From an uncultured Dehalococcoidia bacterium (GTDB lineage Bacteria; Chloroflexota; Dehalococcoidia; Lucifugimonadales; UBA3495): a DNA stretch of 64,000 bases. The notes under the pieces were generated by a model. That model searched no databases. It was not told the DNA's origin and saw only the letters and a list, made by a program, of their open reading frames with translations. The stretch covers positions 3,876,523-3,940,522 of the forward strand of contig OY282456.1 in assembly GCA_958296225.1 (NCBI GenBank). Reading direction: 5' to 3'. The translations under genes and the position numbers were made by a program. Positions 48,053 to 64,000 of the stretch are shown piece by piece (position 1 is the first letter of the stretch; each line of letters starts with the position of its first letter).

Positions 48053-49186
48053 ATGAAAAAGCAGTATCTCCATTATATCGCCGGCGCGGCGGCGCTGCTG
48101 GCGCTGACGCTGGCGGCGGCCTGTACGCAACAGGAAACGCCGGCGCCGCCGCCGGCGACACCTTCCGGGGAAGCCGTGGCCGCGTCGCCGGCCGCCGAGG
48201 CCGTAGCGGCCACGGCTCAGGAGGGCCGGCTGGCCGCCGTGCGCAGCCGGGGCCGCCTGATTTGCGCCAGCAACAACGCCATTCCCGGCTTTGGCTATCT
48301 TGACGAGGGCAACAACGTGGGGTTTGACGTTGACCTGTGCCGCGCCGTCGCCGCCGCCGTGCTGGGCGCCGCCGCCGACGTTGAGGTGCGCCCGGTTACC
48401 GCCACCGAAATGGGGGCTACCCTCCAGTCCGGCGAAGTCGATATGCTGGCCCGCACCGTAACCGTAACCACCTCCCGCGAAACCCAATGGGGCAACTTTG
48501 CCCAGACGATGTACTACGACGGCCAGGGCTTTATCGTGCGCCAGGCCGACGGGCTGACCGGCGCGCAGGAACTGGCCGGGGCCACCGTCTGCGTAACCCA
48601 GGGCACCACCACCGAACTGAACCTGCAAGACTTTTCCAACCTCTACGACCTGGGCATCACCGCCAAAACCTTTGAGCGCACCGACGTGGCCGTGGACGCC
48701 TACCGCAACGGCCAGTGCGACGCCTTCACCACCGACCACTCCGGGCTGTACGCCTATCGCAGCGGCTTTGAGGATAAGGATGAACACATCGTCCTGCCCG
48801 ACACCATCTCCGAGGAACCCCTGGGGCCCGGCGTGCCCCACGGCGATGAGCAGTGGTACGACATCGTGAAAGCGGTAATGGCCATCATCATCTACGCCGA
48901 AGCCTACGGCGTAACCTCAGACACCGTGCCGGCCGCCAAAACCGGCAACTCCGCCGTGGACCGGCTGTTCGGACTGGAAGGCTCCTGGGGCCAGACCGAC
49001 CTGGGCCTCAGCCCAACTGCCGCCCAGGACGTCATCCGCGCCGTGGGCAACTACGGCGAGATTTACGACCGCTACATGGCCCCCCTGGGCCTGGTGCGGG
49101 AAGGCGGACGCAACGCCCTGTGGCCCACCGCGCCCTGCGCCGACTGCCCCAAAGGCGGGCAGCTCTATTCCATACCCCTGCGCTAA
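48053..49186 (+). CDS. Amino-acid ABC transporter substrate-binding lipoprotein 3
   Basis: A 377-residue paralogue, more diverged than the other two. The lipobox is AAAC with Cys24. A shorter Pro/Ala linker is followed by GRLICASNNAIPGFGYLDEG, GEVDMLARTVTVTTSRETQWG, GQCDAFTTDHSGLYAYRSGF and APCADCPKGGQLY. Changes around the binding cleft (MLARTVTVTT instead of MMSNTTTWTT; YDLGITAKTFERTDVAVDAY) suggest a different amino-acid preference. It is 40 bp after gene 2, probably co-transcribed. The CRISPR leader region begins after it. Confidence 0.9.
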   Translation: MKKQYLHYIAGAAALLALTLAAACTQQETPAPPPATPSGEAVAASPAAEAVAATAQEGRLAAVRSRGRLICASNNAIPGFGYLDEGNNVGFDVDLCRAVAAAVLGAAADVEVRPVTATEMGATLQSGEVDMLARTVTVTTSRETQWGNFAQTMYYDGQGFIVRQADGLTGAQELAGATVCVTQGTTTELNLQDFSNLYDLGITAKTFERTDVAVDAYRNGQCDAFTTDHSGLYAYRSGFEDKDEHIVLPDTISEEPLGPGVPHGDEQWYDIVKAVMAIIIYAEAYGVTSDTVPAAKTGNSAVDRLFGLEGSWGQTDLGLSPTAAQDVIRAVGNYGEIYDRYMAPLGLVREGGRNALWPTAPCADCPKGGQLYSIPLR

Positions 49187-49598
49187 CCGCCCAACTCCCG
49201 CCGCCCTTCCGCCCCCGCCGGTTTTTACCGGGATAGATTTGCCGGGATAGAATAGACTGGATAAACAGGATTTGCCGGTTCCGCAATCCTGAAATCCGGT
49301 TTATACTGCGCGCGCAGGGACAGACCCGGCGGCAAGCGGCCCTGACCGCCGGCAACATGAAGGAACCGGGCCCACCGCAAAAGCCGTTCGCGCCGGCGCC
49401 GCTGGCGGTGAACCGCCGGGCCGCCGCAACTTAACAACCGAATAACCCGGCGCTTCCCGGCCGCCGGCCACGTCCGCCGGCCGGAAGGACTCAAACAGCT
49501 GTGGACACCGCCGGGGTGTATCTGGTAAGATGCGGCTACCGGCGCAGCATCATTCCTTTGGCAAATATAGTGGCAGGGTCACTATCAAAACGCCAAGG
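49187..49598 (+). promoter_or_regulatory. Non-coding region, presumed CRISPR leader
   Basis: 412 bp without a supportable gene between the third binding-protein gene and the first CRISPR repeat. The left part holds two copies of ATTTGCCGG around GATAGAATAGACTGGATAAA. TATACT at 49302 is a possible -10. The last 80 bp (CATCATTCCTTTGGCAAATATAGTGGC...) are richer in A/T than the surroundings, as expected of a leader. It lies on the 5' side of the array as judged from repeat orientation. Which part acts as leader is inferred. Confidence 0.5.
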
Positions 49599-52500
49599 GG
49601 TTCCCCCGCACACGCGGGGATAGTCCCGATTCCGCCGCGCCGGGCACAATATGCGCTTGGGTTCCCCCGCACACGCGGGGATAGTCCGTTCGTCACAGCC
49701 TTCTCCTGAGCCCCCGTTGCGGTTCCCCCGCACACGCGGGGATAGTCCCCGGAGGTTGCCGCCGGCAGTGCCAGCCCGAACGGTTCCCCCGCACACGCGG
49801 GGATAGTCCGCGTCATACGGTTTTCTGCTCACCGGCGATGTCGGTTCCCCCGCACACGCGGGGATAGTCCTAGCCAGCCCTCCCTAATCGGGCAAACGTT
49901 TGAGGTTCCCCCGCACACGCGGGGATAGTCCGGCTATCTCCACTGAGCCCGTATTCCCGCCGCCGGTTCCCCCGCACACGCGGGGATAGTCCGACTTCAA
50001 GACGGCGCCGTTCCTCTTCGCTAACGGTTCCCCCGCACACGCGGGGATAGTCCTGGTACGCGCGCAGTCCGTCGTATTCCCGATTCGGTTCCCCCGCACA
50101 CGCGGGGATAGTCCGCCACGCAGTGCCAGGCCAGCGTTCCGGGCTGAGGTTCCCCCGCACACGCGGGGATAGTCCGCGCCAACTCCCGTTGCCCATCGTC
50201 CACGTCCGGGTTCCCCCGCACACGCGGGGATAGTCCCCAGCATATTTATCAACTCATGGCACGGGGGCAGGTTCCCCCGCACACGCGGGGATAGTCCTTA
50301 AGCCGGCCGGCCGGCTGACCGGGAGGGCTGGGTTCCCCCGCACACGCGGGGATAGTCCTTGTCAGAGTGGAGGTCGTCCCGGTCTGCCGGAGGTTCCCCC
50401 GCACACGCGGGGATAGTCCCTGGGATGACATCGCGGCCAGTCTGCAGACCGCGGTTCCCCCGCACACGCGGGGATAGTCCATACTCTGTGCTTTCCACCA
50501 CCAGGGATACGGTGGTTCCCCCGCACACGCGGGGATAGTCCGCTGAACCCGGTCGCAATCATGGGCACCAGAAAGGTTCCCCCGCACACGCGGGGATAGT
50601 CCGTATGGCTGCTCCACGCCGCACCAAATTGCAGGGGTTCCCCCGCACACGCGGGGATAGTCCGCCATTCAAATAGCCGTCGGGATGTTGGGGTAGGGTT
50701 CCCCCGCACACGCGGGGATAGTCCGGCCAGGCAATTCGTCGTTGCGACACATGATGCGGTTCCCCCGCACACGCGGGGATAGTCCGCCTACGCTGGGGTC
50801 GGCGGGGCCCTTGCCGGCGGTTCCCCCGCACACGCGGGGATAGTCCCCAGATAGACGCCTCGACCTGGTACGACGACGAGGTTCCCCCGCACACGCGGGG
50901 ATAGTCCGGAGCATCCAAATGTCAACCACTCTCACCGTGAGGTTCCCCCGCACACGCGGGGATAGTCCTGGGCTTATGATGGGCCCGACACGTCGCCCCT
51001 GGGTTCCCCCGCACACGCGGGGATAGTCCCCGGGCAACGTCAGAGAGGACGACGAATCAGGCGGTTCCCCCGCACACGCGGGGATAGTCCGGGTTCCAAA
51101 ATCGGTTACAGGTATCGCCAGTAGGTTCCCCCGCACACGCGGGGATAGTCCGCCATTTTTGACACTCGCCGGATGCGCGCGGCAGGTTCCCCCGCACACG
51201 CGGGGATAGTCCGTGAGGGTTCCGCCAATTCCCAGGGGCGAGGTTGGTTCCCCCGCACACGCGGGGATAGTCCCCGATTGGCCAGGCCGCCGCGGCGGAT
51301 GCGCTGGGTTCCCCCGCACACGCGGGGATAGTCCGTAATGCCTTTGCCAACATCAGGTCCTCGTGCCGGTTCCCCCGCACACGCGGGGATAGTCCATGGA
51401 CAGCCATAGGCGCAGCCTATGACGCTATGGTTCCCCCGCACACGCGGGGATAGTCCTCCGGCGCCATCTCCATGCGTCAGCCGGGGACGGGTTCCCCCGC
51501 ACACGCGGGGATAGTCCCGGGTCCAACTTCCGAAGGTCGGCCCAGCATTCGGTTCCCCCGCACACGCGGGGATAGTCCGATGGCGGCCGCCGGGGTGGGG
51601 ACAATCGCGCCGGTTCCCCCGCACACGCGGGGATAGTCCTGTAATGCTCGTCGTGGCAACAGGCGTGGATAGGGTTCCCCCGCACACGCGGGGATAGTCC
51701 TGTCAGCGTCAGGCGCGATGCTGGCGATTGCAAGGTTCCCCCGCACACGCGGGGATAGTCCTATCCGCTCCGGCGGTTCTGGAGGCAGCATTGCGGTTCC
51801 CCCGCACACGCGGGGATAGTCCCATCGTTAGGCAAGCAACCGGATTCCAGGATGGGGTTCCCCCGCACACGCGGGGATAGTCCTCACTTTGCCGATAGAT
51901 TATCAGCTCTACCGAGGGTTCCCCCGCACACGCGGGGATAGTCCGCAAATTGGAACGCTACGAACCTACAGCAGGCGGGTTCCCCCGCACACGCGGGGAT
52001 AGTCCCAGCAGCAAGGGCATCAGCGCCGCCGCGGCCGTGGTTCCCCCGCACACGCGGGGATAGTCCGTGGGCGGCCCGCCGTTGCGTCCGGGCCCGGTCG
52101 GTTCCCCCGCACACGCGGGGATAGTCCCAAAACGGGCGATTTTTTTGCCGCTCTATTGTGGGTTCCCCCGCACACGCGGGGATAGTCCCTGCTACGCGGA
52201 AGTAACGACCCGGCGAATTCAGGTTCCCCCGCACACGCGGGGATAGTCCTCTCGACAGACCATTGATTCATCACGTTGTGAGGGTTCCCCCGCACACGCG
52301 GGGATAGTCCTGCGACATCTACCCCGAAATGCCGGATGATGAGGGTTCCCCCGCACACGCGGGGATAGTCCCTGCGAACACTGCAACGAGTTTTTCCCCT
52401 TCACGGTTCCCCCGCACACGCGGGGATAGTCCGGTTGATTGACTAACCCACCACCCCAAGCAAGGGGTTCCCCCGCACACGCGGGGATAGTCCGAGCCGG

Positions 52501-55500
52501 CAACTCCTCCCGCTGCTCAGGCCGCAGGTTCCCCCGCACACGCGGGGATAGTCCGAAATCCTGCAATTCCCGACTGGCGGCGGTAGCGGTTCCCCCGCAC
52601 ACGCGGGGATAGTCCTTCCCCGATTTGCTGGCAGATTTGCTTGCCTGCGGTTCCCCCGCACACGCGGGGATAGTCCTCGTTACCTCGGTATCCAGCGCGA
52701 TGTCCAGCGGGTTCCCCCGCACACGCGGGGATAGTCCCTGCTCCCGGCAGACCGCCATCGCCTCCGCATAGGGTTCCCCCGCACACGCGGGGATAGTCCC
52801 CGGATGATGGACGAGTGGGACGACACCGCCGAGGTTCCCCCGCACACGCGGGGATAGTCCCCAAGAATACCGGGAATGCCAGATTAGCGTACCGGTTCCC
52901 CCGCACACGCGGGGATAGTCCCGCCCCGGACGGTATCCGACGGCAACGCCGCCGGGTTCCCCCGCACACGCGGGGATAGTCCCCCGATACCAACACGAAC
53001 CCGGAGGACACGATGGGTTCCCCCGCACACGCGGGGATAGTCCGTTCGTAGGCCGCGCAATCTTTCGCGGGTTCGTGGTTCCCCCGCACACGCGGGGATA
53101 GTCCCAAAACTACCCGCCGCCGCAAGACCGAACCCGGGGTTCCCCCGCACACGCGGGGATAGTCCGTTGGTAGGGGTGATTCCTTGCCCGCGAAAACTGG
53201 TTCCCCCGCACACGCGGGGATAGTCCGCCGGTGATGGCATCCCAGTCGTTCGGACGCCAGGTTCCCCCGCACACGCGGGGATAGTCCCCGCAGTTAGCGC
53301 ATAGCAGGCCGGCGGCGTGCGGTTCCCCCGCACACGCGGGGATAGTCCGTCAGCGGTAGCGCAACCCGATGCGCCCGCCTTGGTTCCCCCGCACACGCGG
53401 GGATAGTCCTCTGGCAGCCGCTTTACCAGCGGCAACAGCCGGGGTTCCCCCGCACACGCGGGGATAGTCCCGCCGGCCAGCGCGATAGAGGGCGCGGCGG
53501 CGTGGTTCCCCCGCACACGCGGGGATAGTCCTGTCCTTTTCGTGCGTATAGCGGTTGCCGCGGTGGTTCCCCCGCACACGCGGGGATAGTCCCACGCTGA
53601 TGGCGCCCACCCGCGCAATGCCGTCGGTTCCCCCGCACACGCGGGGATAGTCCCTATGACCGAACGCGAAAAGCCGGTTGACGCCGGGTTCCCCCGCACA
53701 CGCGGGGATAGTCCCCCAATGCAGGCCGGCCGTACACCACTTGCTTGGGTTCCCCCGCACACGCGGGGATAGTCCCGTCGTTTCTGTCCGTCGCCAGCCC
53801 AAACAATCGGTTCCCCCGCACACGCGGGGATAGTCCGACCCGACGCCGGCATCGTACCCGGCAAAAGAAGGTTCCCCCGCACACGCGGGGATAGTCCCCT
53901 GGGCCTGCCAGCGCGCTTCGCTGATGAGGTGGTTCCCCCGCACACGCGGGGATAGTCCCGCGCCGCCGGTATGCAGCAGGCGGCAAGGCGGGGTTCCCCC
54001 GCACACGCGGGGATAGTCCCCGATGCCGAGTCGAGTGGTTATAGTTGGACAAGGTTCCCCCGCACACGCGGGGATAGTCCTATACTGGTCTGGCGTCGGG
54101 TCCTCGCCCAGTAGGTTCCCCCGCACACGCGGGGATAGTCCACGGCTCCCAGACCCCGCGTAGAAACTGCGTCGGGTTCCCCCGCACACGCGGGGATAGT
54201 CCCGGCCGACCGCAGGCGGGAGTGCCGCGCCCCGAGGTTCCCCCGCACACGCGGGGATAGTCCCGGGAGGCGTTCAGGGGTTGCCTATCATTCGCTGGTT
54301 CCCCCGCACACGCGGGGATAGTCCTCTAGCGTAATACAAAAGCGTGACGCTAGATTGGGTTCCCCCGCACACGCGGGGATAGTCCTCACATCATCATTTT
54401 TCCGAGTTTCCAGTGTGTGGTTCCCCCGCACACGCGGGGATAGTCCTGCCCCCGGCGTAGCGCTACGCCGGGGGCAAAAGGTTCCCCCGCACACGCGGGG
54501 ATAGTCCTACGGGGGCTGCGAAGCGGGCTTTCGACACGCAGGTTCCCCCGCACACGCGGGGATAGTCCCACGATCTGGACTCCCTGTTCGACATCCGCCC
54601 TGGTTCCCCCGCACACGCGGGGATAGTCCCAACGACCTGGGGCGCTATACCAGGGAGCAGCTGGTTCCCCCGCACACGCGGGGATAGTCCGGCTGCAATC
54701 GTAGTCCAGAGCGGGCTATCCCCGGTTCCCCCGCACACGCGGGGATAGTCCCAGCTCAGCATGAATACGCGCCCCTGCCGCGCCGGTTCCCCCGCACACG
54801 CGGGGATAGTCCCCCCTCCAGCAGAGACGCGGACAGGTCGATATAGGTTCCCCCGCACACGCGGGGATAGTCCTACGCTAGGGCAATGCAGAAGTCAACA
54901 GATAATGGTTCCCCCGCACACGCGGGGATAGTCCGCACCGTAAGGGTCCTGAGCGGCATCCAGCTGGGGTTCCCCCGCACACGCGGGGATAGTCCCTAGG
55001 ATTATACCAGTGTACGCAAGGCGCAAGGGGTTCCCCCGCACACGCGGGGATAGTCCGGGTTTGTCGCCGCCGGCCGTGCCGCTAGCTCCGGTTCCCCCGC
55101 ACACGCGGGGATAGTCCGTTACGAAGTAAATTGGCAACGCCGTCCCGGTCGGTTCCCCCGCACACGCGGGGATAGTCCGATGATGCAGCAGCGGATTGTC
55201 CGTCCACGGGGGGTTCCCCCGCACACGCGGGGATAGTCCCGGGGATGATTGACCCGCAGGCCGGGCTGGACTGGTTCCCCCGCACACGCGGGGATAGTCC
55301 CCGCCGCTCCCCGCCCCGGATATAGGCCCGCCCGGTTCCCCCGCACACGCGGGGATAGTCCTTACAGTTCCGCGCGTTTTGCCGCAGTGTTAGAGGTTCC
55401 CCCGCACACGCGGGGATAGTCCTACGGCTAACACCGGAATCGAATTATCCCGGCCGGTTCCCCCGCACACGCGGGGATAGTCCCCGTAGGCAGCAGCGCG

Positions 55501-58500
55501 TTAGAGCGGACGCACTGGTTCCCCCGCACACGCGGGGATAGTCCCCGCATCGTCGGATTCTACGATGACATTTATCAGGTTCCCCCGCACACGCGGGGAT
55601 AGTCCTTGCAGCTCCGGCATCCTGACAGCGGCAGGGGTGGTTCCCCCGCACACGCGGGGATAGTCCCGCGGCCCAGCGGCCCAGGTGTTCGGCAACGCGG
55701 GTTCCCCCGCACACGCGGGGATAGTCCCCATGCCACAGCACGCACAAACCAAGTGTTCAGGGTTCCCCCGCACACGCGGGGATAGTCCTTCTACGCGGGC
55801 CTGCCAGTCGCAGCGCCATACGGTTCCCCCGCACACGCGGGGATAGTCCTCAAGGAGGCGATGCAATGCCCATATCCATTACGGTTCCCCCGCACACGCG
55901 GGGATAGTCCGCTCCAAGAAGCTCCGGTAGTTGAACATCTGGTGGTTCCCCCGCACACGCGGGGATAGTCCGTACTCCGCGAGGCGGTGGCAGTTCGAGT
56001 GGTTGGTTCCCCCGCACACGCGGGGATAGTCCTGGCTGGGATGACCTGCAGTATCTACTGGGCGAGGTTCCCCCGCACACGCGGGGATAGTCCTCATCCA
56101 GACCATCGCGGTTCTCATTGCCTGGCGGTTCCCCCGCACACGCGGGGATAGTCCGTGGCGTTCAGTGTGATTTACCAAATCATCTACGGTTCCCCCGCAC
56201 ACGCGGGGATAGTCCTGTCACCCCCTACGACCCTACCGACATCGATGAGGTTCCCCCGCACACGCGGGGATAGTCCTTCGGCCGGCGGCTCGGCTACTCG
56301 CATCAGCTTGGTTCCCCCGCACACGCGGGGATAGTCCTACAGAACGTTTAGGCCGGAACGCCCGTCTATCGGTTCCCCCGCACACGCGGGGATAGTCCGA
56401 CATCGCTGGGGCTGTCAACCGACCGCCCCCTGGTTCCCCCGCACACGCGGGGATAGTCCTTTGAGCCAGCGTTTCCGGCGGCAGTGCTAGCAGGTTCCCC
56501 CGCACACGCGGGGATAGTCCTTTCGCAGTCGCTGGTAGGGGCGGGAACGGCGGGGTTCCCCCGCACACGCGGGGATAGTCCGTGCGTCTGCGATTGGACG
56601 GACGGATGCCTGATGGTTCCCCCGCACACGCGGGGATAGTCCCCGTCCAGCACGAAGCCCTCGTTAGCAGCGCTAGGTTCCCCCGCACACGCGGGGATAG
56701 TCCTTGACCGATACCCAGTTTTCGGCTTACGCCAGCGGTTCCCCCGCACACGCGGGGATAGTCCGGACGAAACTTGCGGCTGGTGTCGCCGCGATGCGGT
56801 TCCCCCGCACACGCGGGGATAGTCCCGTCGCTGGGCATGGTCATCTCCTCCACTAGGCGGTTCCCCCGCACACGCGGGGATAGTCCGCACGAATAAGCGG
56901 TATTTAGTGTACATTGATCGGTTCCCCCGCACACGCGGGGATAGTCCGACACCGAGGCAGCGGCGTGAGCCGCTGCCTCGGGTTCCCCCGCACACGCGGG
57001 GATAGTCCCGACAGGTTGTCGGCGACGAACATAGAGCGGCTGGTTCCCCCGCACACGCGGGGATAGTCCGCCGGCCGATGACAGCAGCCCCGTAGCGGGT
57101 CAGGTTCCCCCGCACACGCGGGGATAGTCCTCTGACCAGCCGATAATAGCTGTCGCCGCCGGAGGTTCCCCCGCACACGCGGGGATAGTCCCTGCGTTCA
57201 GAATGACCAGGGGCCCGCCGTGGCGGGTTCCCCCGCACACGCGGGGATAGTCCCGCCACCGCGCTCTCAAAACCTTCATCCGAGTAGGTTCCCCCGCACA
57301 CGCGGGGATAGTCCTTACCATTCCGCGTCCTTCCGTGATCGCTCGGCGGTTCCCCCGCACACGCGGGGATAGTCCTCGACGGGCGAATCTCCGACCGGCA
57401 AGTCGGGCGGTTCCCCCGCACACGCGGGGATAGTCCTTTGCGGGTAGGGAGCAGGCTCATCTGGTCCTCGGTTCCCCCGCACACGCGGGGATAGTCCCGT
57501 TCTCTCTGCCCGAAGCCTGGCCGTGCTGGCGGTTCCCCCGCACACGCGGGGATAGTCCCCATCGTATCCTCCGTTGGGGTGTAGGCTCGTCGGTTCCCCC
57601 GCACACGCGGGGATAGTCCCTGGCAGCTTTGCCTACCCTGCTGGCGGCGGTGGGTTCCCCCGCACACGCGGGGATAGTCCCCAGCCGTGACCTTGCAGCA
57701 TCTGCACCACCTCGGTTCCCCCGCACACGCGGGGATAGTCCCCGACGCAGCAGGGCGGCCATGCCCGCGGCCGTGGTTCCCCCGCACACGCGGGGATAGT
57801 CCCAACCTGCGCGCGGTGGGCGACCTGAACGCCGAGGTTCCCCCGCACACGCGGGGATAGTCCCTCGTGATGACGCACTACATCCCCCGGCGGAGCGGTT
57901 CCCCCGCACACGCGGGGATAGTCCGTTGCCGAGCCGCTCCTCAGTTGTCGCCAGCAGGGTTCCCCCGCACACGCGGGGATAGTCCTACCCCTATTATGCT
58001 GGCGGGGGCGTCGCAAGGGGTTCCCCCGCACACGCGGGGATAGTCCCCTTGCCAGCCGACGAACCGGAGTAGGCAGCGCGGTTCCCCCGCACACGCGGGT
58101 ATAGTCCTCACTGTTCTACCTCCATGTAGCAGGTGCGGCAGGTTCCCCCGCACACGCGGGTATAGTCCTACGCTAGATATTCACCCAGAGCCTGCGGTCA
58201 TGGTTCCCCCGCACACGCGGGGATAGTCCTTTCGTGGCGGCCGGTCACTGCTCCGCTGGCGGGGTTCCCCCGCACACGCGGGGATAGTCCCGACCTATCG
58301 CCGGAGTACAGGGATGACTACGAGGTTCCCCCGCACACGCGGGGATAGTCCCAAAATCTGGTCACCGCACCGGGGGTTGAATCCGGTTCCCCCGCACACG
58401 CGGGGATAGTCCGGTTTTTATCGGCGCCAATCCCCCGCTGGAGACGGTTCCCCCGCACACGCGGGGATAGTCCGTACAGGTACTACCAGTTTCCCGACAT

Positions 58501-61500
58501 AAGGGAGGTTCCCCCGCACACGCGGGGATAGTCCGGTCAAGCGCGCCGGCTCCGCTATCCAGCATCCGGTTCCCCCGCACACGCGGGGATAGTCCGGGCC
58601 GGCCAAAGGTAAAGAATCCGCCGGTCTGGGTTCCCCCGCACACGCGGGGATAGTCCTGTTTTTGTTCCTGCCGTAGTTCAGCTCTCCCAGGTTCCCCCGC
58701 ACACGCGGGGATAGTCCCTGCAGGTCGTGCTTTTTGTCGATGTCCAGCCAGGTTCCCCCGCACACGCGGGGATAGTCCCGGACGCCGGCGCCGGTTTTGG
58801 CTTGGCCGTGTGGTTCCCCCGCACACGCGGGGATAGTCCCCAGCGGTTGAAATAGGGCAGCTGCGTTTGAATGGTTCCCCCGCACACGCGGGGATAGTCC
58901 CCACGGCATCACCCAGCAGCGCGTTAGCGCCATGGTTCCCCCGCACACGCGGGGATAGTCCCTTCGGCCAGCCCTTCGGCCATCCTTTCTACGGGGTTCC
59001 CCCGCACACGCGGGGATAGTCCTCTCGCCGCCCACCCACTGGTCGGCGAGCCAGAGGTTCCCCCGCACACGCGGGGATAGTCCTGTATTGCGATTTTCGT
59101 TGCCCCCCCGACCGATGGTTCCCCCGCACACGCGGGGATAGTCCCTCCGCGACGCCAGACGCGCGATTCCCCGCCTCGGTTCCCCCGCACACGCGGGGAT
59201 AGTCCTCGCCAGCCGGGTATGCCCTGCTCCGGTATCACGGTTCCCCCGCACACGCGGGGATAGTCCTATGACCGCTGGAACCACGACGACGCAGACCTCG
59301 GTTCCCCCGCACACGCGGGGATAGTCCCGTCAGCCTGGCGATTTCCCGCCTTTCTGTATCGGTTCCCCCGCACACGCGGGGATAGTCCCCAGGTTTAGGG
59401 CGGTCGTGTCTTTCGCTGCCAGGTTCCCCCGCACACGCGGGGATAGTCCGAACACCTATCACGTTGGCGATGCGCTGGGATGGGTTCCCCCGCACACGCG
59501 GGGATAGTCCAATGACCGCTTTGGCCAGGCCCAAACGGTTGTCGGTTCCCCCGCACACGCGGGGATAGTCCGGATGCATCATGATTGAAACGCCATCCAC
59601 CGTAGGTTCCCCCGCACACGCGGGGATAGTCCGGATACTGGCGGATGTACAGGCTGAACGTGGCTGGTTCCCCCGCACACGCGGGGATAGTCCTGCCGGC
59701 GTCCTGACTTACGGGCGGGCCGGCCAGGTTCCCCCGCACACGCGGGGATAGTCCGATTGGTAAAATCGTCGCTGCAAAACCCTTTACGGTTCCCCCGCAC
59801 ACGCGGGGATAGTCCAGGCGGTGGTTGACATCGCCTTTATCGTAGTGTGGTTCCCCCGCACACGCGGGGATAGTCCGTAATAAACAGTATCGTGGCCCAG
59901 CACGGGAGCGGTTCCCCCGCACACGCGGGGATAGTCCGTAGGGTTGCTCCACGCCGCACCAAATTGCAGGGGTTCCCCCGCACACGCGGGGATAGTCCAT
60001 GCTCGTCCGGGCATTGGGCATAGTGCCAGTCGGTTCCCCCGCACACGCGGGGATAGTCCTGTCCATTGACAACACGCCTTGCGGCTATCCCGGGTTCCCC
60101 CGCACACGCGGGGATAGTCCTAGTATCATCGTGGTTTTACATCGTCAAAGCGAGGTTCCCCCGCACACGCGGGGATAGTCCTAGTATCATCGTGGTTTTA
60201 CATCGTCAAAGCGAGGTTCCCCCGCACACGCGGGGATAGTCCCGGACACGGCCGGGCGCACAACGTTGCTGATCCGGTTCCCCCGCACACGCGGGGATAG
60301 TCCCCAGCGAGATATTGCCGCCGGACGTGACGATAGGGTTCCCCCGCACACGCGGGGATAGTCCCGTTGCTGATCCAATGCCGACCGCCACGGGTAGGGT
60401 TCCCCCGCACACGCGGGGATAGTCCGGTGCAGCGATATGAGGACAGCGCATGGCCTCCGGTTCCCCCGCACACGCGGGGATAGTCCCCGGCCCTGGTGCT
60501 TGCCGCCGCGGCGGCCCAGGGTTCCCCCGCACACGCGGGGATAGTCCTTTGCGTGCGTTGGGCTGGTATCGGTCTGGAGTGGTTCCCCCGCACACGCGGG
60601 GATAGTCCCGCCGGCGCCGGATTTGGACGACACCCCCCCGGGGTTCCCCCGCACACGCGGGGATAGTCCCCGGCCCAGGTGTGCGGCGGCCCTGGTGTGC
60701 TAGGTTCCCCCGCACACGCGGGGATAGTCCCCCTCCGTCGGGCCGGTGCTACCGTCGGGCCGGGGTTCCCCCGCACACGCGGGGATAGTCCGCACCAGCG
60801 CGGCCCGCAACCCTCCGTCGGGCCGGTTCCCCCGCACACGCGGGGATAGTCCTCCAGTCCTGCCACGCTCACGGCGGCGCAAACCGGTTCCCCCGCACAC
60901 GCGGGGATAGTCCTTACATTGAAGACAGCGAACGCCAGAACGAAAAGGTTCCCCCGCACACGCGGGGATAGTCCGTTTCCCGTAGGGGACTCCCGCCAAG
61001 ACTGTTCGGTTCCCCCGCACACGCGGGGATAGTCCTTTCTGCCGGTACAATCGGGTTTGCCAGCAGCGGGTTCCCCCGCACACGCGGGGATAGTCCGTGG
61101 TCGAGGCGGCGGGGCGGGGACGGCTTTAGGGTTCCCCCGCACACGCGGGGATAGTCCTGTCCCTCGTGAGGCCGCAAGCTCCCGCGCAGGGGTTCCCCCG
61201 CACACGCGGGGATAGTCCCGGTTCCCCGGTCCGCGTCGTGACCGGCTGGGAGGTTCCCCCGCACACGCGGGGATAGTCCCCACATAGTCCAGTGGCGCTG
61301 TCCGCTGCAGCAGGTTCCCCCGCACACGCGGGGATAGTCCCCGCCGCCGCCAGTACCAGGTACTCGCCATAGGGGTTCCCCCGCACACGCGGGGATAGTC
61401 CCTGTTTGACCTTACGCCAACCTCTTGCCACCAAGGTTCCCCCGCACACGCGGGGATAGTCCCCCGCTGTATGCCCCCGCTGATTGAGTCAGCGGGGTTC

Positions 61501-63058
61501 CCCCGCACACGCGGGGATAGTCCGCAGGTGCAGGCTTACCTGTGGGCCCGCACGGTGGTTCCCCCGCACACGCGGGGATAGTCCCGGGTGCCGTCGGCCG
61601 TGACGCCAAATTCCTGCGGTTCCCCCGCACACGCGGGGATAGTCCTGCCGGCGTCCTGACTTACGGGCGGGCCGGCCAGGTTCCCCCGCACACGCGGGGA
61701 TAGTCCCAGACAGCGGACGACATAGCCGGCGGTGTACCGGGTTCCCCCGCACACGCGGGGATAGTCCTGCCCCCGACCGCTGGAAGGTGGCGCTACGGGC
61801 GGTTCCCCCGCACACGCGGGGATAGTCCGTGCGGACGCTGGCACAAGAAAAGGCCGCCGAGGGTTCCCCCGCACACGCGGGGATAGTCCCGGTAATGACG
61901 GTTTGGGCCGCGCCCGCGCCGTGGTTCCCCCGCACACGCGGGGATAGTCCCAGGTCGGCGCAGACGCGGGCATGATCATGAAGGGTTCCCCCGCACACGC
62001 GGGGATAGTCCGTGGACGTGGGATTGAAGGCGCTGGCGGTATGCGGGTTCCCCCGCACACGCGGGGATAGTCCGCAACGATAGAGCGGCCGCCGGTGGAC
62101 ATCCCAGGTTCCCCCGCACACGCGGGGATAGTCCGTTCCGGTCCTTCGCCTGGCCGGCGATACTTTGGGTTCCCCCGCACACGCGGGGATAGTCCCCGCG
62201 AGCTCGCCATCTGGCGGCACCGAACGACGGTTCCCCCGCACACGCGGGGATAGTCCCACCGTTTGCGCCGCCTGTGGCACTGCGGACAGGGTTCCCCCGC
62301 ACACGCGGGGATAGTCCTGGCAACCAGTACGATGTGAGCGAGCTGGTTACGGTTCCCCCGCACACGCGGGGATAGTCCGTGGCGGCCATCCACGAGCTGC
62401 CCCCGGCAGAGGGTTCCCCCGCACACGCGGGGATAGTCCGTTGACCTATCATCGTCTTTCACCAGTTCGAGCGGTTCCCCCGCACACGCGGGGATAGTCC
62501 GTGGAGTACCTGCAGGCAAAAGCCAAAGCCATCGGTTCCCCCGCACACGCGGGGATAGTCCTCGCGGCCAGAAAGTCGGGGCTGACGTCGGGGTGGTTCC
62601 CCCGCACACGCGGGGATAGTCCCTGGAGAAAGAGCGCAACGCCAAGTACGACGTGGGTTCCCCCGCACACGCGGGGATAGTCCCGTGCAGATACGGGCAA
62701 TCGGGTTCGAAACTCAGGTTCCCCCGCACACGCGGGGATAGTCCGTTGCGTTTGCTGATACTCGTATTCCTCTTTGCGGTTCCCCCGCACACGCGGGGAT
62801 AGTCCGGCTTGCAGGTTCTCTATGCCGCAGTCAAGCCCGGTTCCCCCGCACACGCGGGGATAGTCCGGCTTGCCGCTAGGTTAGTGGCAGCTGCACCGTT
62901 TGCCGACGGGTTCCCCCGCACACGCGGGGATAGTCCTTTGCGCTGCAGGTCTTTCGCGGCAGCTACTCGGGTTCCCCCGCACACGCGGGGATAGTCCTGT
63001 CGGCATCCCTCGCCAGCTGGCGGTCATAGCGGTTCCCCCGCACACGCGGGGATGGTAG
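49599..63058 (+). CRISPR. Type I-E-like CRISPR array: 221 repeats, 220 spacers
   Basis: The repeat is 28 bp, beginning GGTTCCCCCG and ending CGGGGATAGTCC, with a CCCCGC...GCGGGG-type internal palindrome. It resembles E. coli-type I-E repeats, whose crRNA handle is AUAAACCG; here it would be AUAGUCC. I followed all repeat starts from 49599 to 63031. The spacing is 61 bp except for three 62-bp steps (spacers starting 52738, 57192 and 62012 are 34 nt) and one 70-bp step (spacer 62867-62908 is 42 nt). This accounts exactly for the length. Repeats are uniform except at 58080 and 58141 (G21 to T) and the last at 63031. Orientation puts the leader on the left. No cas gene is in the window. Confidence 0.97.
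63031..63058 (+). repeat. Terminal CRISPR repeat with altered 3' end
   Basis: The first 23 bases match the consensus exactly. The last five read GGTAG instead of AGTCC. This is either normal decay of the leader-distal repeat or truncation by the adjoining insertion sequence, whose transposase stop codon is only 10 bp further on. Confidence 0.8.
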
Positions 63059-63067
63059 CGTTCCGTT

Positions 63068-63844
63068 TTAGGTGGTTTGGTTGAGCAGGCCCCGGTTTTG
63101 GAGCAATACCAGCAGGTTGTGCGGTGTCCATACCGTGCCCATTCTTTCCCGCCGCCGCAGCTCCCGATTGTGCCGTTCCAAAGGGGAGGTCGTCTTGTGC
63201 CGCGCTTGCCCGGTGGCCAAATGGCGCAGTCCTTTCCCCAGGGCTTTCCGACACCAGTACGTCCCCCGGCCTCCGGTCAACGCGGCCATCCCCGCCGCAT
63301 AGCCCCGGGCCTCCGCCAGGCCGGACGATGCCAGCAGTCGCCGCGCTGCCGGCCAGCCGTCTGCCCCGATGTTCCGCCGGTACTCCCGCAGCAGGTGGAA
63401 ATGGCAGAGTTGATGGGGCGCTTGCCGGCCATAGACCATCCGGATGCCCGCGGCGATGGCCGCATCTCCGTCGCTCACCAGGTGCGTTGGCTGAACCGCC
63501 CCCTGCCGCCAGGCCTGGTCAATCACCCCTGCCCAACTCCCAAAGGCCCCCAGAGCCACGCCGTTTTCATCTCGGATGACCTTCAATTCCGTAGCTCCGG
63601 CCCGCGTTCTGGTCCACAATCCGTCGATCTCCAACACCCGCCCCCGCAGCTCCGGCTGCGCTATTGGCTCCCGTCGCAGCCAGCGGCACAAGGTGCTTTT
63701 GACGAACCCGAACCATTGGCCGCTCTGGGCGTAACTCAACCCCTGCGCCGCCAGTTTGATGGCTAGTTCCCGGGTTTTTTTGAGTACCTCTGATAACGTT
63801 CTGCTTCGCCCAGCAGGTCGGCGCCGCTGGCCATCCGGCCGCAC
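63068..63844 (-). CDS. Transposase catalytic part (orfB), Mutator/MULE-like DDE enzyme
   Basis: A helix-turn-helix-like segment (TRELAIKLAAQGLSYAQSGQWFGFVKSTLCRWL) leads into the catalytic core. DDE candidates are Asp in VLEIDGLWTRT, Asp in HLVSDGDAAIAAGI, and Glu in TTSPLERHNRELRRRERMG. LCHFHLLREYRRNIG between them resembles Mutator/IS256-type transposases. I am not sure of the IS family. The gene is probably made as a fusion with orfA by a -1 frameshift at 63775-63781. The nominal start at 63844 may not be used, since the sensible protein begins after the slip site. No stop interrupts the core, so the element may be active. Confidence 0.8.
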   Translation of the reverse strand: MRPDGQRRRPAGRSRTLSEVLKKTRELAIKLAAQGLSYAQSGQWFGFVKSTLCRWLRREPIAQPELRGRVLEIDGLWTRTRAGATELKVIRDENGVALGAFGSWAGVIDQAWRQGAVQPTHLVSDGDAAIAAGIRMVYGRQAPHQLCHFHLLREYRRNIGADGWPAARRLLASSGLAEARGYAAGMAALTGGRGTYWCRKALGKGLRHLATGQARHKTTSPLERHNRELRRRERMGTVWTPHNLLVLLQNRGLLNQTT

Positions 63845-64000
63845 TGGCCGCAGCGGAACACGGGCATCTGCAACCGAATTGCCCCATAGCGGGTGGTGAT
63901 AGTGCGGGCGTAGCGATGATGCCGGTGCATCGCTAAACCGCAGTCCGGGCAGAGGGGCTGGTAATCATCCAAAGCCTGCTGCAACGACTGCTGCAACCGG
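63763..64000 (-). CDS. Transposase N-terminal part (orfA) with zinc-finger motif, start outside window
   Basis: The frame is open to the window end, so the beginning is missing. The visible 78 residues hold LCPDCGLAMHRHHRYART and FRCGQCGRMASGADLL, a four-Cys zinc-finger arrangement typical of transposase N-termini, and end RYSKKPGN at a stop at 63763. The frame of orfB overlaps this one by about 80 bp. At the A7 run a shift of one base back joins RYSKK to TRELAIKL without a break in sense. Confidence 0.75.
   Translation of the reverse strand, partial: RLQQSLQQALDDYQPLCPDCGLAMHRHHRYARTITTRYGAIRLQMPVFRCGQCGRMASGADLLGEAERYQRYSKKPGN
63775..63781 (-). other. Candidate -1 ribosomal frameshift site (A AAA AAA)
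   Basis: On the minus strand the orfA codons are TCA AAA AAA CCC, giving the slippery heptamer A AAA AAA in the correct register. Slipping back one base continues ACC CGG GAA CTA in orfB. The orfA stop is 9 bp further on. This arrangement is well known from IS1- and IS3-type elements. A sequencing or decay frameshift in the homopolymer is the alternative. Confidence 0.6.

What the first reader, a model, noticed from the sequence alone, without database searches (positions are those of the whole stretch)
63031..64000. Insertion sequence may sit inside a CRISPR repeat, so the array could continue past the window
The last repeat is perfect for 23 bases and then switches to GGTAGCGTTCC. The transposase stop lies 10 bp beyond, leaving no room for an inverted repeat unless the IS end is at or within the repeat. 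That is the expected picture if the IS landed in a repeat at base 23. The remaining 5 bases (plus a target duplication) and further spacers would then lie on the far side. If so, the array is larger than 220 spacers and split from its old end.
Basis: inference. Interest (0 to 1): 0.7.

Follow-up and report, generated by a model that had tools for sequence, protein, structure and literature searches.

The report
Jumping gene splits giant CRISPR array
A small jumping gene that prefers to land just in front of promoters has landed inside one repeat of a very long bacterial CRISPR memory array, apparently because the neighbouring memory sequence looks like a promoter, and the array runs on for 55 more repeats behind it.

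Summary
Confirmed. The window lies in a single-contig genome of 3.97 Mb. An element of 1,076 bp (window 63054 to window-equivalent 64129) sits inside repeat 221 of a type I-E-like array. Both its ends are inside the repeat. The 9-bp duplication CGCGGGGAT flanks it, and the five missing repeat bases (AGTCC) follow. The array continues for 55 repeats: 276 repeats and 275 spacers in all, with a second, IS5-like element inside a later spacer. Taking out the element and one duplication restores 61-bp spacing. IS6110 in a tuberculosis CRISPR repeat is a published precedent.

The element and its ~122-bp derivatives insert about 16 bp upstream of sigma-A-like promoters: 36 of 125 other ends score 9 of 12 or better at offsets 15-17, against 0-2 at clearly different offsets. 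Spacer 221 holds the array's only + strand TATAAT, at the right distance. By a matrix trained on the other ends, the real site ranks 4th of 16,896 array positions. The cut seems set by a promoter-like spacer, not by the repeat. That promoter points into the cut-off part and might keep it transcribed, which is untested.

The parts
49599..63053 (+). Leader-proximal part of the CRISPR array: 221 repeats (the last one split) and 220 spacers; unit 61 bp, repeat GGTTCCCCCGCACACGCGGGGATAGTCC
49179..49598 (+). Leader region; 93% identical over 138 nt to the region before the first repeat of the second array, which fixes the direction of the array
63031..63053 (+). Left 23 bases of split repeat 221; keeps the whole stem-loop
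63045..63053 (+). Left copy of the 9-bp target duplication CGCGGGGAT (right copy at genome 3940652-3940660, beyond the window)
63054..64000 (-). Insertion sequence, 1,076 bp in all, continuing to window-equivalent 64129 (genome 3939576-3940651); Mutator-superfamily transposase read on the - strand
63054..63083 (+). Left terminal inverted repeat, 29 of 30 bases matching the right one
63068..63844 (-). Transposase second frame (DDE part, Pfam Transposase_mut and HTH_23)
63763..63999 (-). Transposase first frame (N-terminal zinc-finger-like part); its likely ATG is at window-equivalent 64050, beyond the window
63775..63781 (-). A7 run in phase A AAA AAA, the likely -1 frameshift site; present in all 17 copies of 1,076 bp

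Best explanation
A 1,076-bp insertion sequence of the Mutator superfamily transposed into repeat 221 of a 276-repeat type I-E-like CRISPR array. It made a 9-bp duplication and cut the array into a leader-proximal part (220 spacers) and a distal part (55 repeats). The landing point was set by the element's preference for sites 15-17 bp upstream of the -35 box of sigma-A promoters: the adjacent spacer 221 carries a promoter-like sequence (TGGTTA, 18 bp, TATAAT) at offset 16. The repeat was hit because it is what lies 16 bp upstream. Shown: insertion, duplication, continuation, and the target preference of the family. Statistically supported: that this preference chose this site. Inferred: spacer 220 can still be matured, because the left half keeps the whole Cas6e-type stem-loop; spacer 221 is lost, because its right half has no stem; and the distal repeats may be transcribed from the promoter in spacer 221, whose expected start lies in repeat 222.
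For: Ends, duplication and continuation. Target preference: TTG at offset 16 in 36 of 125 ends of other copies; TATAAT with at most one mismatch peaks at offsets 38-41. 36 of 125 ends score >=9/12 at offsets 15-17, against 0, 1 or 2 at offset triplets that do not overlap or adjoin. 9 of 17 other full-length copies and 16 of 24 paired short elements in L105-L154 score >=9. Ends of related elements in other genomes of the genus also fit (L044, L045, L063, L064). Window site: rank 4 of 16,896 positions; repeated on array-only positions: 4 of 16,696 with all ends, 14 of 16,696 with a matrix from full-length copies only, 2 of 16,696 with short elements only. TATAAT occurs once on each strand of the IS-free array. 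Stem-loop kept on the left, absent on the right. The published rule for TnGBS, ISLre2 and ISKra4 elements is the same distance (PMC3942029, passages).
Against: The -35 of the site matches TTGACA at only 3 of 6 positions. 7 of 17 other full-length copies have no promoter-like match (>=8) at the rule's distance, so insertion without one is possible. A general promoter scan of the region found no sigma-70 promoter (it needs 4 of 6 per hexamer). Transcription and crRNAs were not measured. A terminator-like pattern is formed at the left junction (3 found against 1.0 expected), so read-through is uncertain.
Confidence: 0.82

Rival explanations
1. The IS prefers CRISPR repeats or palindromic G+C-rich stems, as proposed for IS6110 in the tuberculosis DR region.
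For: The insertion is in the stem of a palindromic repeat. IS6110 is said to use the CRISPR repeat as a hot spot (PMC7820667).
Against: None of the other target duplications seen is a CRISPR repeat. Only one of about 402 repeats with at most two mismatches shows an insertion of this element, though the genome has 200 end matches. No exact copy of this junction in the other 49 of 50 family genomes searched.
Confidence: 0.06
2. Chance: the IS landed at random in neutral DNA and the promoter-like match is a coincidence.
For: 7 of 17 other full-length copies do not follow the rule at >=8; the -35 is weak.
Against: Rank 4 of 16,896; 2 to 14 of 16,696 with other training sets.
Confidence: 0.1
3. Assembly artefact: two arrays or an array end and an IS copy were joined wrongly at one of the many IS copies.
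For: The genome holds 17 other near-identical copies; the reads were not available.
Against: The two flanks share the exact 9-bp duplication and together rebuild one perfect repeat in register; a chance misjoin would not. The copy is distinct, 24 or more differences from every other.
Confidence: 0.02

Closest known systems
IS6110 in the DR (CRISPR) locus of Mycobacterium tuberculosis H37Rv (PMC7820667, abstract and passages read)
   Same: An IS splits one CRISPR repeat into two halves and one array into two; joining the flanks restores the repeat.
   Different: IS6110 is an IS3-family element with a 3-bp duplication; a type III-A array; no promoter-like sequence in the next spacer is reported in the passages read.
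TnGBS, ISLre2 and ISKra4-group elements (Mutator-like p-MULT transposases; PMC3942029, abstract and passages read)
   Same: Insertion at a fixed distance, 15-17 bp, upstream of the -35 of sigma-A promoters; promoters on either side when the two inverted repeats are nearly perfect, as here.
   Different: The transposase here is best matched by ISH6 and only weakly by ISKra4, and uses a -1 frameshift, which the paper reports for the ISMich2 group, not for the promoter-targeting ones. 1,076 bp is slightly below the 1.1 kb minimum the paper gives.
IS insertions into cas genes (PMC10359306, passages read)
   Same: IS transposition interrupts a CRISPR-Cas locus; the paper also mentions earlier reports of insertions into CRISPR loci.
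   Different: There the cas genes are inactivated; here only the array is cut, and most of it stays joined to its leader.
Cryptic promoters inside CRISPR arrays of Sulfolobales (PMC10883916, abstract start seen in a search listing)
   Same: Spacers carry promoter-like sequences.
   Different: Archaeal TATA promoters; no IS targeting in what was seen.

Membership tests
Type I-E CRISPR array | 28-29 nt repeat with CCCCGC/GCGGGG stem and 61-bp unit | tested here: met
   28-nt repeat, 33-nt spacers, 6-bp stem
Type I-E CRISPR array | type I-E cas genes (Cas3, Cas8e, Cas7e, Cas5e, Cas6e, Cas1e) | tested here: met
   Not beside this array, but at about 404-415 kb next to the second array, whose repeat differs at one base. 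Pfam PF09481 alone missed Cas8e. Cas2 and Cas11 were not looked for.
ISKra4 family | transposase over the NCBIfam cut-off | tested here: not met
   32.3 bits against 205
ISKra4 / ISLre2 / TnGBS way of targeting | insertion 15-17 bp upstream of sigma-A -35 boxes | tested here: met
ISMich2 group | transposase in two frames joined by -1 frameshift | tested here: met
   A7 slippery site and two frames in 17 of 17 copies of 1,076 bp; the frameshift itself is not shown. Group membership by tree was not tested.
ISH6 family | transposase over the NCBIfam cut-off | tested here: not met
   69.8 bits against 240, but the best hit of all
ISH6 family | AT-rich duplicated target AANATNTT (from PMC3942029) | tested here: not met
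   Duplications are G+C-rich, 8-10 bp, and differ from copy to copy
IS256 family | transposase over the NCBIfam cut-off | tested here: not met
   40.6 bits against 150
Mutator superfamily (Pfam Transposase_mut) | match over Pfam's gathering score | tested here: met
   21.8 bits against 21, barely

The most novel reading that the evidence does not exclude
Promoter-targeting insertion sequences use promoter-like sequences captured in spacers as landing sites in CRISPR arrays. Because they always land just upstream of such a promoter, the part that they cut off from the leader keeps a promoter of its own pointing into it. A single insertion thus costs one spacer and turns one array into two independently transcribed ones.
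Probability: 0.28. Interest if true: 0.62.

Novelty: new variant of a known kind. Interest (0 to 1): 0.43.

Why it matters
The finding that an IS splits a CRISPR repeat is known from tuberculosis bacteria. What is new here, as far as the searches show, is a reason for the landing point: a promoter-like spacer attracts a promoter-targeting element. It gives a testable link between what a CRISPR array has captured and where mobile elements break it, and a way for the old, cut-off memories to stay expressed. It also shows that tools or readers that stop at the IS would miss 55 repeats.

Tried and rejected
Promoter scan of the IS and its junctions with a generic sigma-70 pattern: no promoter found, three terminator-like patterns against 1.0 expected; not used as evidence for or against beyond what is said. 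Pfam PF09481 to find Cse1: no hit, yet Cas8e is there by PADLOC profiles, so the first impression of a missing Cse1 was dropped. Search for the protospacer of spacer 221 in viral contigs, whole and a 22-base core, exact matches only: none. Search for the exact left junction in 50 family genomes: found without mismatch only in the own genome. Sharing of spacers with relatives: the distal array region matched relatives only at 68-75%, as repeats alone would give. Self-targeting of the IS by spacers: among the 31 listed matches of spacers to fetched DNA none lies in this IS; nearly all are other spacers, one 17-base match lies outside an array (A2_394562 in L002), and only fetched loci were searched. 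Simple count of TTGAC within 60 bp of the copies, without fixed distance: 11 sites in 18 copies against 0.36 per 120 bp elsewhere (about 6.6 expected), an unimpressive excess; the fixed-distance test replaced it. Rows left out: the target-rule set was taken from 17 full-length copies and from 50 loci around end matches among the first 100 of 200 listed; the unlisted 100, the four fetched-nowhere two-mismatch hits, and the fragments L019-L030 were not used; ends with less than 62 bases of flank and repeats of the same first 40 flank bases were dropped, number not printed. The training ends of the matrix were those with a consensus score of at least 8 (41 of 125). Note 1 says 11 of 18 copies have a duplication; the right count is 10 of 18.

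Full report
Observation. The last repeat in the window (63031) matches the 28-nt repeat for 23 bases and then changes to GGTAGCGTTCC. The array in the window has 218 perfect repeats, two with one change, and this one. The window is G000:C1:3876523-3940522 of a one-contig genome of 3,968,852 bases, so about 28 kb beyond the window could be read. The closest named relative found is an uncultured Dehalococcoidia bacterium, OY282494.1, whose IS protein is 88% identical.

The element. The sequence after base 23 is the end of an insertion sequence. It recurs in 17 further near-full-length places, 14 of which start to match at exactly window 63054. The other end is at genome 3940651: 1,076 bp, inverted repeats 29 of 30. 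The flanks are ...GCACACGCGGGGAT and CGCGGGGATAGTCC..., a 9-bp duplication and the rest of the repeat. Of 18 copies (window copy included) 10 have duplications of 8-10 bp. All 17 copies of 1,076 bp have the same two reading frames and an A7 run in the phase A AAA AAA, as expected of a programmed -1 frameshift. The joined protein of 327 residues matches ISH6 (69.8 bits, cut-off 240), IS256 (40.6, 150) and ISKra4 (32.3, 205), all under their cut-offs; Pfam Transposase_mut is just over its own. I file it as a Mutator-superfamily element without a family.

The array. 55 repeats follow the element, the last one degenerate: 276 repeats, 275 spacers counting the one after the split repeat and the one that holds the second element. 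Of the 55 distal repeats 52 are perfect: one search counts 54 perfect among the 58 in L039, of which two are before the IS. The leader is on the left: the region before the first repeat is 93% identical over 138 nt to that before the first repeat of the second array, and the degenerate repeats are at the right end. Longer arrays are known: 587 spacers in Haliangium ochraceum (PMC7145573, passage). The longest in three sponge metagenomes had 169 (PMC5099237, passage); whether this genome is from a sponge is not known to me. The array has no cas genes in the part of the window before it that I listed (36.0-49.6 kb, read by eye); a type I-E set (Cas3e, Cas8e, Cas7e, Cas5e, Cas6e, Cas1e) lies beside the second array at about 404-415 kb.

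Why there. PMC3942029 (passages) reports that several Mutator-like elements insert 15-17 bp upstream of the -35 box of sigma-A promoters. I tested this on all ends except the window copy: 125 distinct ends from 17 full-length copies and 50 loci with ends of the same type, mostly short elements of 121-123 bp. TTG stands at offset 16 in 36 of 125 ends, and typically in 1 to 4 at other offsets. TATAAT-like hexamers cluster at offsets 38-41. The two boxes together reach 9 of 12 in 36 of 125 ends at offsets 15-17; shifting the offsets gives 0 to 2, except 5 and 11 for the triplets that share a position with the right one. Each element has two ends, of which one at most should face a promoter.

The window copy was then the test case. 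To its right lie 14 bases of repeat and spacer 221, GATGGTTATAGACGGCGCGCTTGCGGTATAATG, with TGGTTA at offset 16, 18 bases, TATAAT: 9 of 12. In the array with both elements taken out, 11 of 16,896 positions reach 9, five of them at and around this site. By a matrix trained on the other ends the true site ranks 4th of 16,896; on array-only positions 4th of 16,696, 14th with full-length copies alone (12 training ends), 2nd with the short elements alone (29). Neighbouring positions are not independent, so these ranks are rough probabilities of about 1e-4 to 1e-3. Against it: the -35 is weak, and 7 of 17 other full-length copies have no match of 8 or more.

What it does. The left half keeps the six-pair stem-loop and two bases after it; the right half loses the 5' side of the stem. 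By what is known of type I-E processing (Cas6e cuts at the 3' base of the stem; recalled, not tested), the crRNA of spacer 220 can still be cut at its 3' side, while that of spacer 221 cannot get its 5' handle. Transcripts from the leader must pass the IS, whose transposase is read against them. The promoter-like sequence in spacer 221 points away from the IS into the 55 distal repeats; its start would be expected in repeat 222, before or within the stem, so that spacer 222 and later ones could be matured. This last step is inference only.

Known and new. An IS in a CRISPR repeat with the array split in two is described for IS6110 in M. tuberculosis (PMC7820667, abstract and passages). Promoter-targeted insertion is described for related elements. 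I found no report of the two together in the listings, which cover open papers only and were read as titles and starts of abstracts apart from the papers named.

Noticed in passing
Genome-wide; L105-L154, for example L107, L110, L118, L151, L152: Short elements of about 121-123 bp with the same inverted repeats, probably MITEs moved by this IS. 200 end matches with at most 2 mismatches in the genome. 16 of 24 paired short elements in these loci sit 15-17 bp upstream of a promoter-like sequence scoring 9 or more of 12, so they may affect many genes.
   Followed up: partly
L039 4134-5027 (genome 3943533-3944426) and L041 around genome 392698-393618: An IS5-like element (about 860 bp, CTAG-type target) sits inside a spacer in each of the two arrays.
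   Followed up: partly
window 54081-54113; genome 3941764; genome 392119: The same 33-nt spacer occurs three times, on both sides of the IS and in the second array; neighbours were not compared.
   Followed up: no
G000:C1 397300-416000 (L099): Type I-E cas genes, a type III-A (Csm) set whose Cas10 frame looks short or split, and a TIGR02710 CARF protein lie together beside the second array.
   Followed up: no
G000:C1 3570000-3584000 (L100): A type I-G cas locus with fused Cas4-Cas1, and a full-length copy of the same IS (L005) a few kb away.
   Followed up: no
L041, second array: Two repeat variants in one array: 85 GGTCTATCC...GGGAACC and 33 ending GGGAATC on the + strand, the latter all in the part away from the leader; the array differs from the window array at one repeat base.
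   Followed up: no
window 48053-49598 and genome 3944900 onward: The array lies between a gene for an amino-acid ABC transporter binding protein and a permease gene (names by eye, no family search). In 9 of 9 permease loci looked at from genus relatives (L051-L059) no such repeat is nearby.
   Followed up: partly
window 62867-62908: One spacer of 42 nt where nearly all have 33.
   Followed up: no
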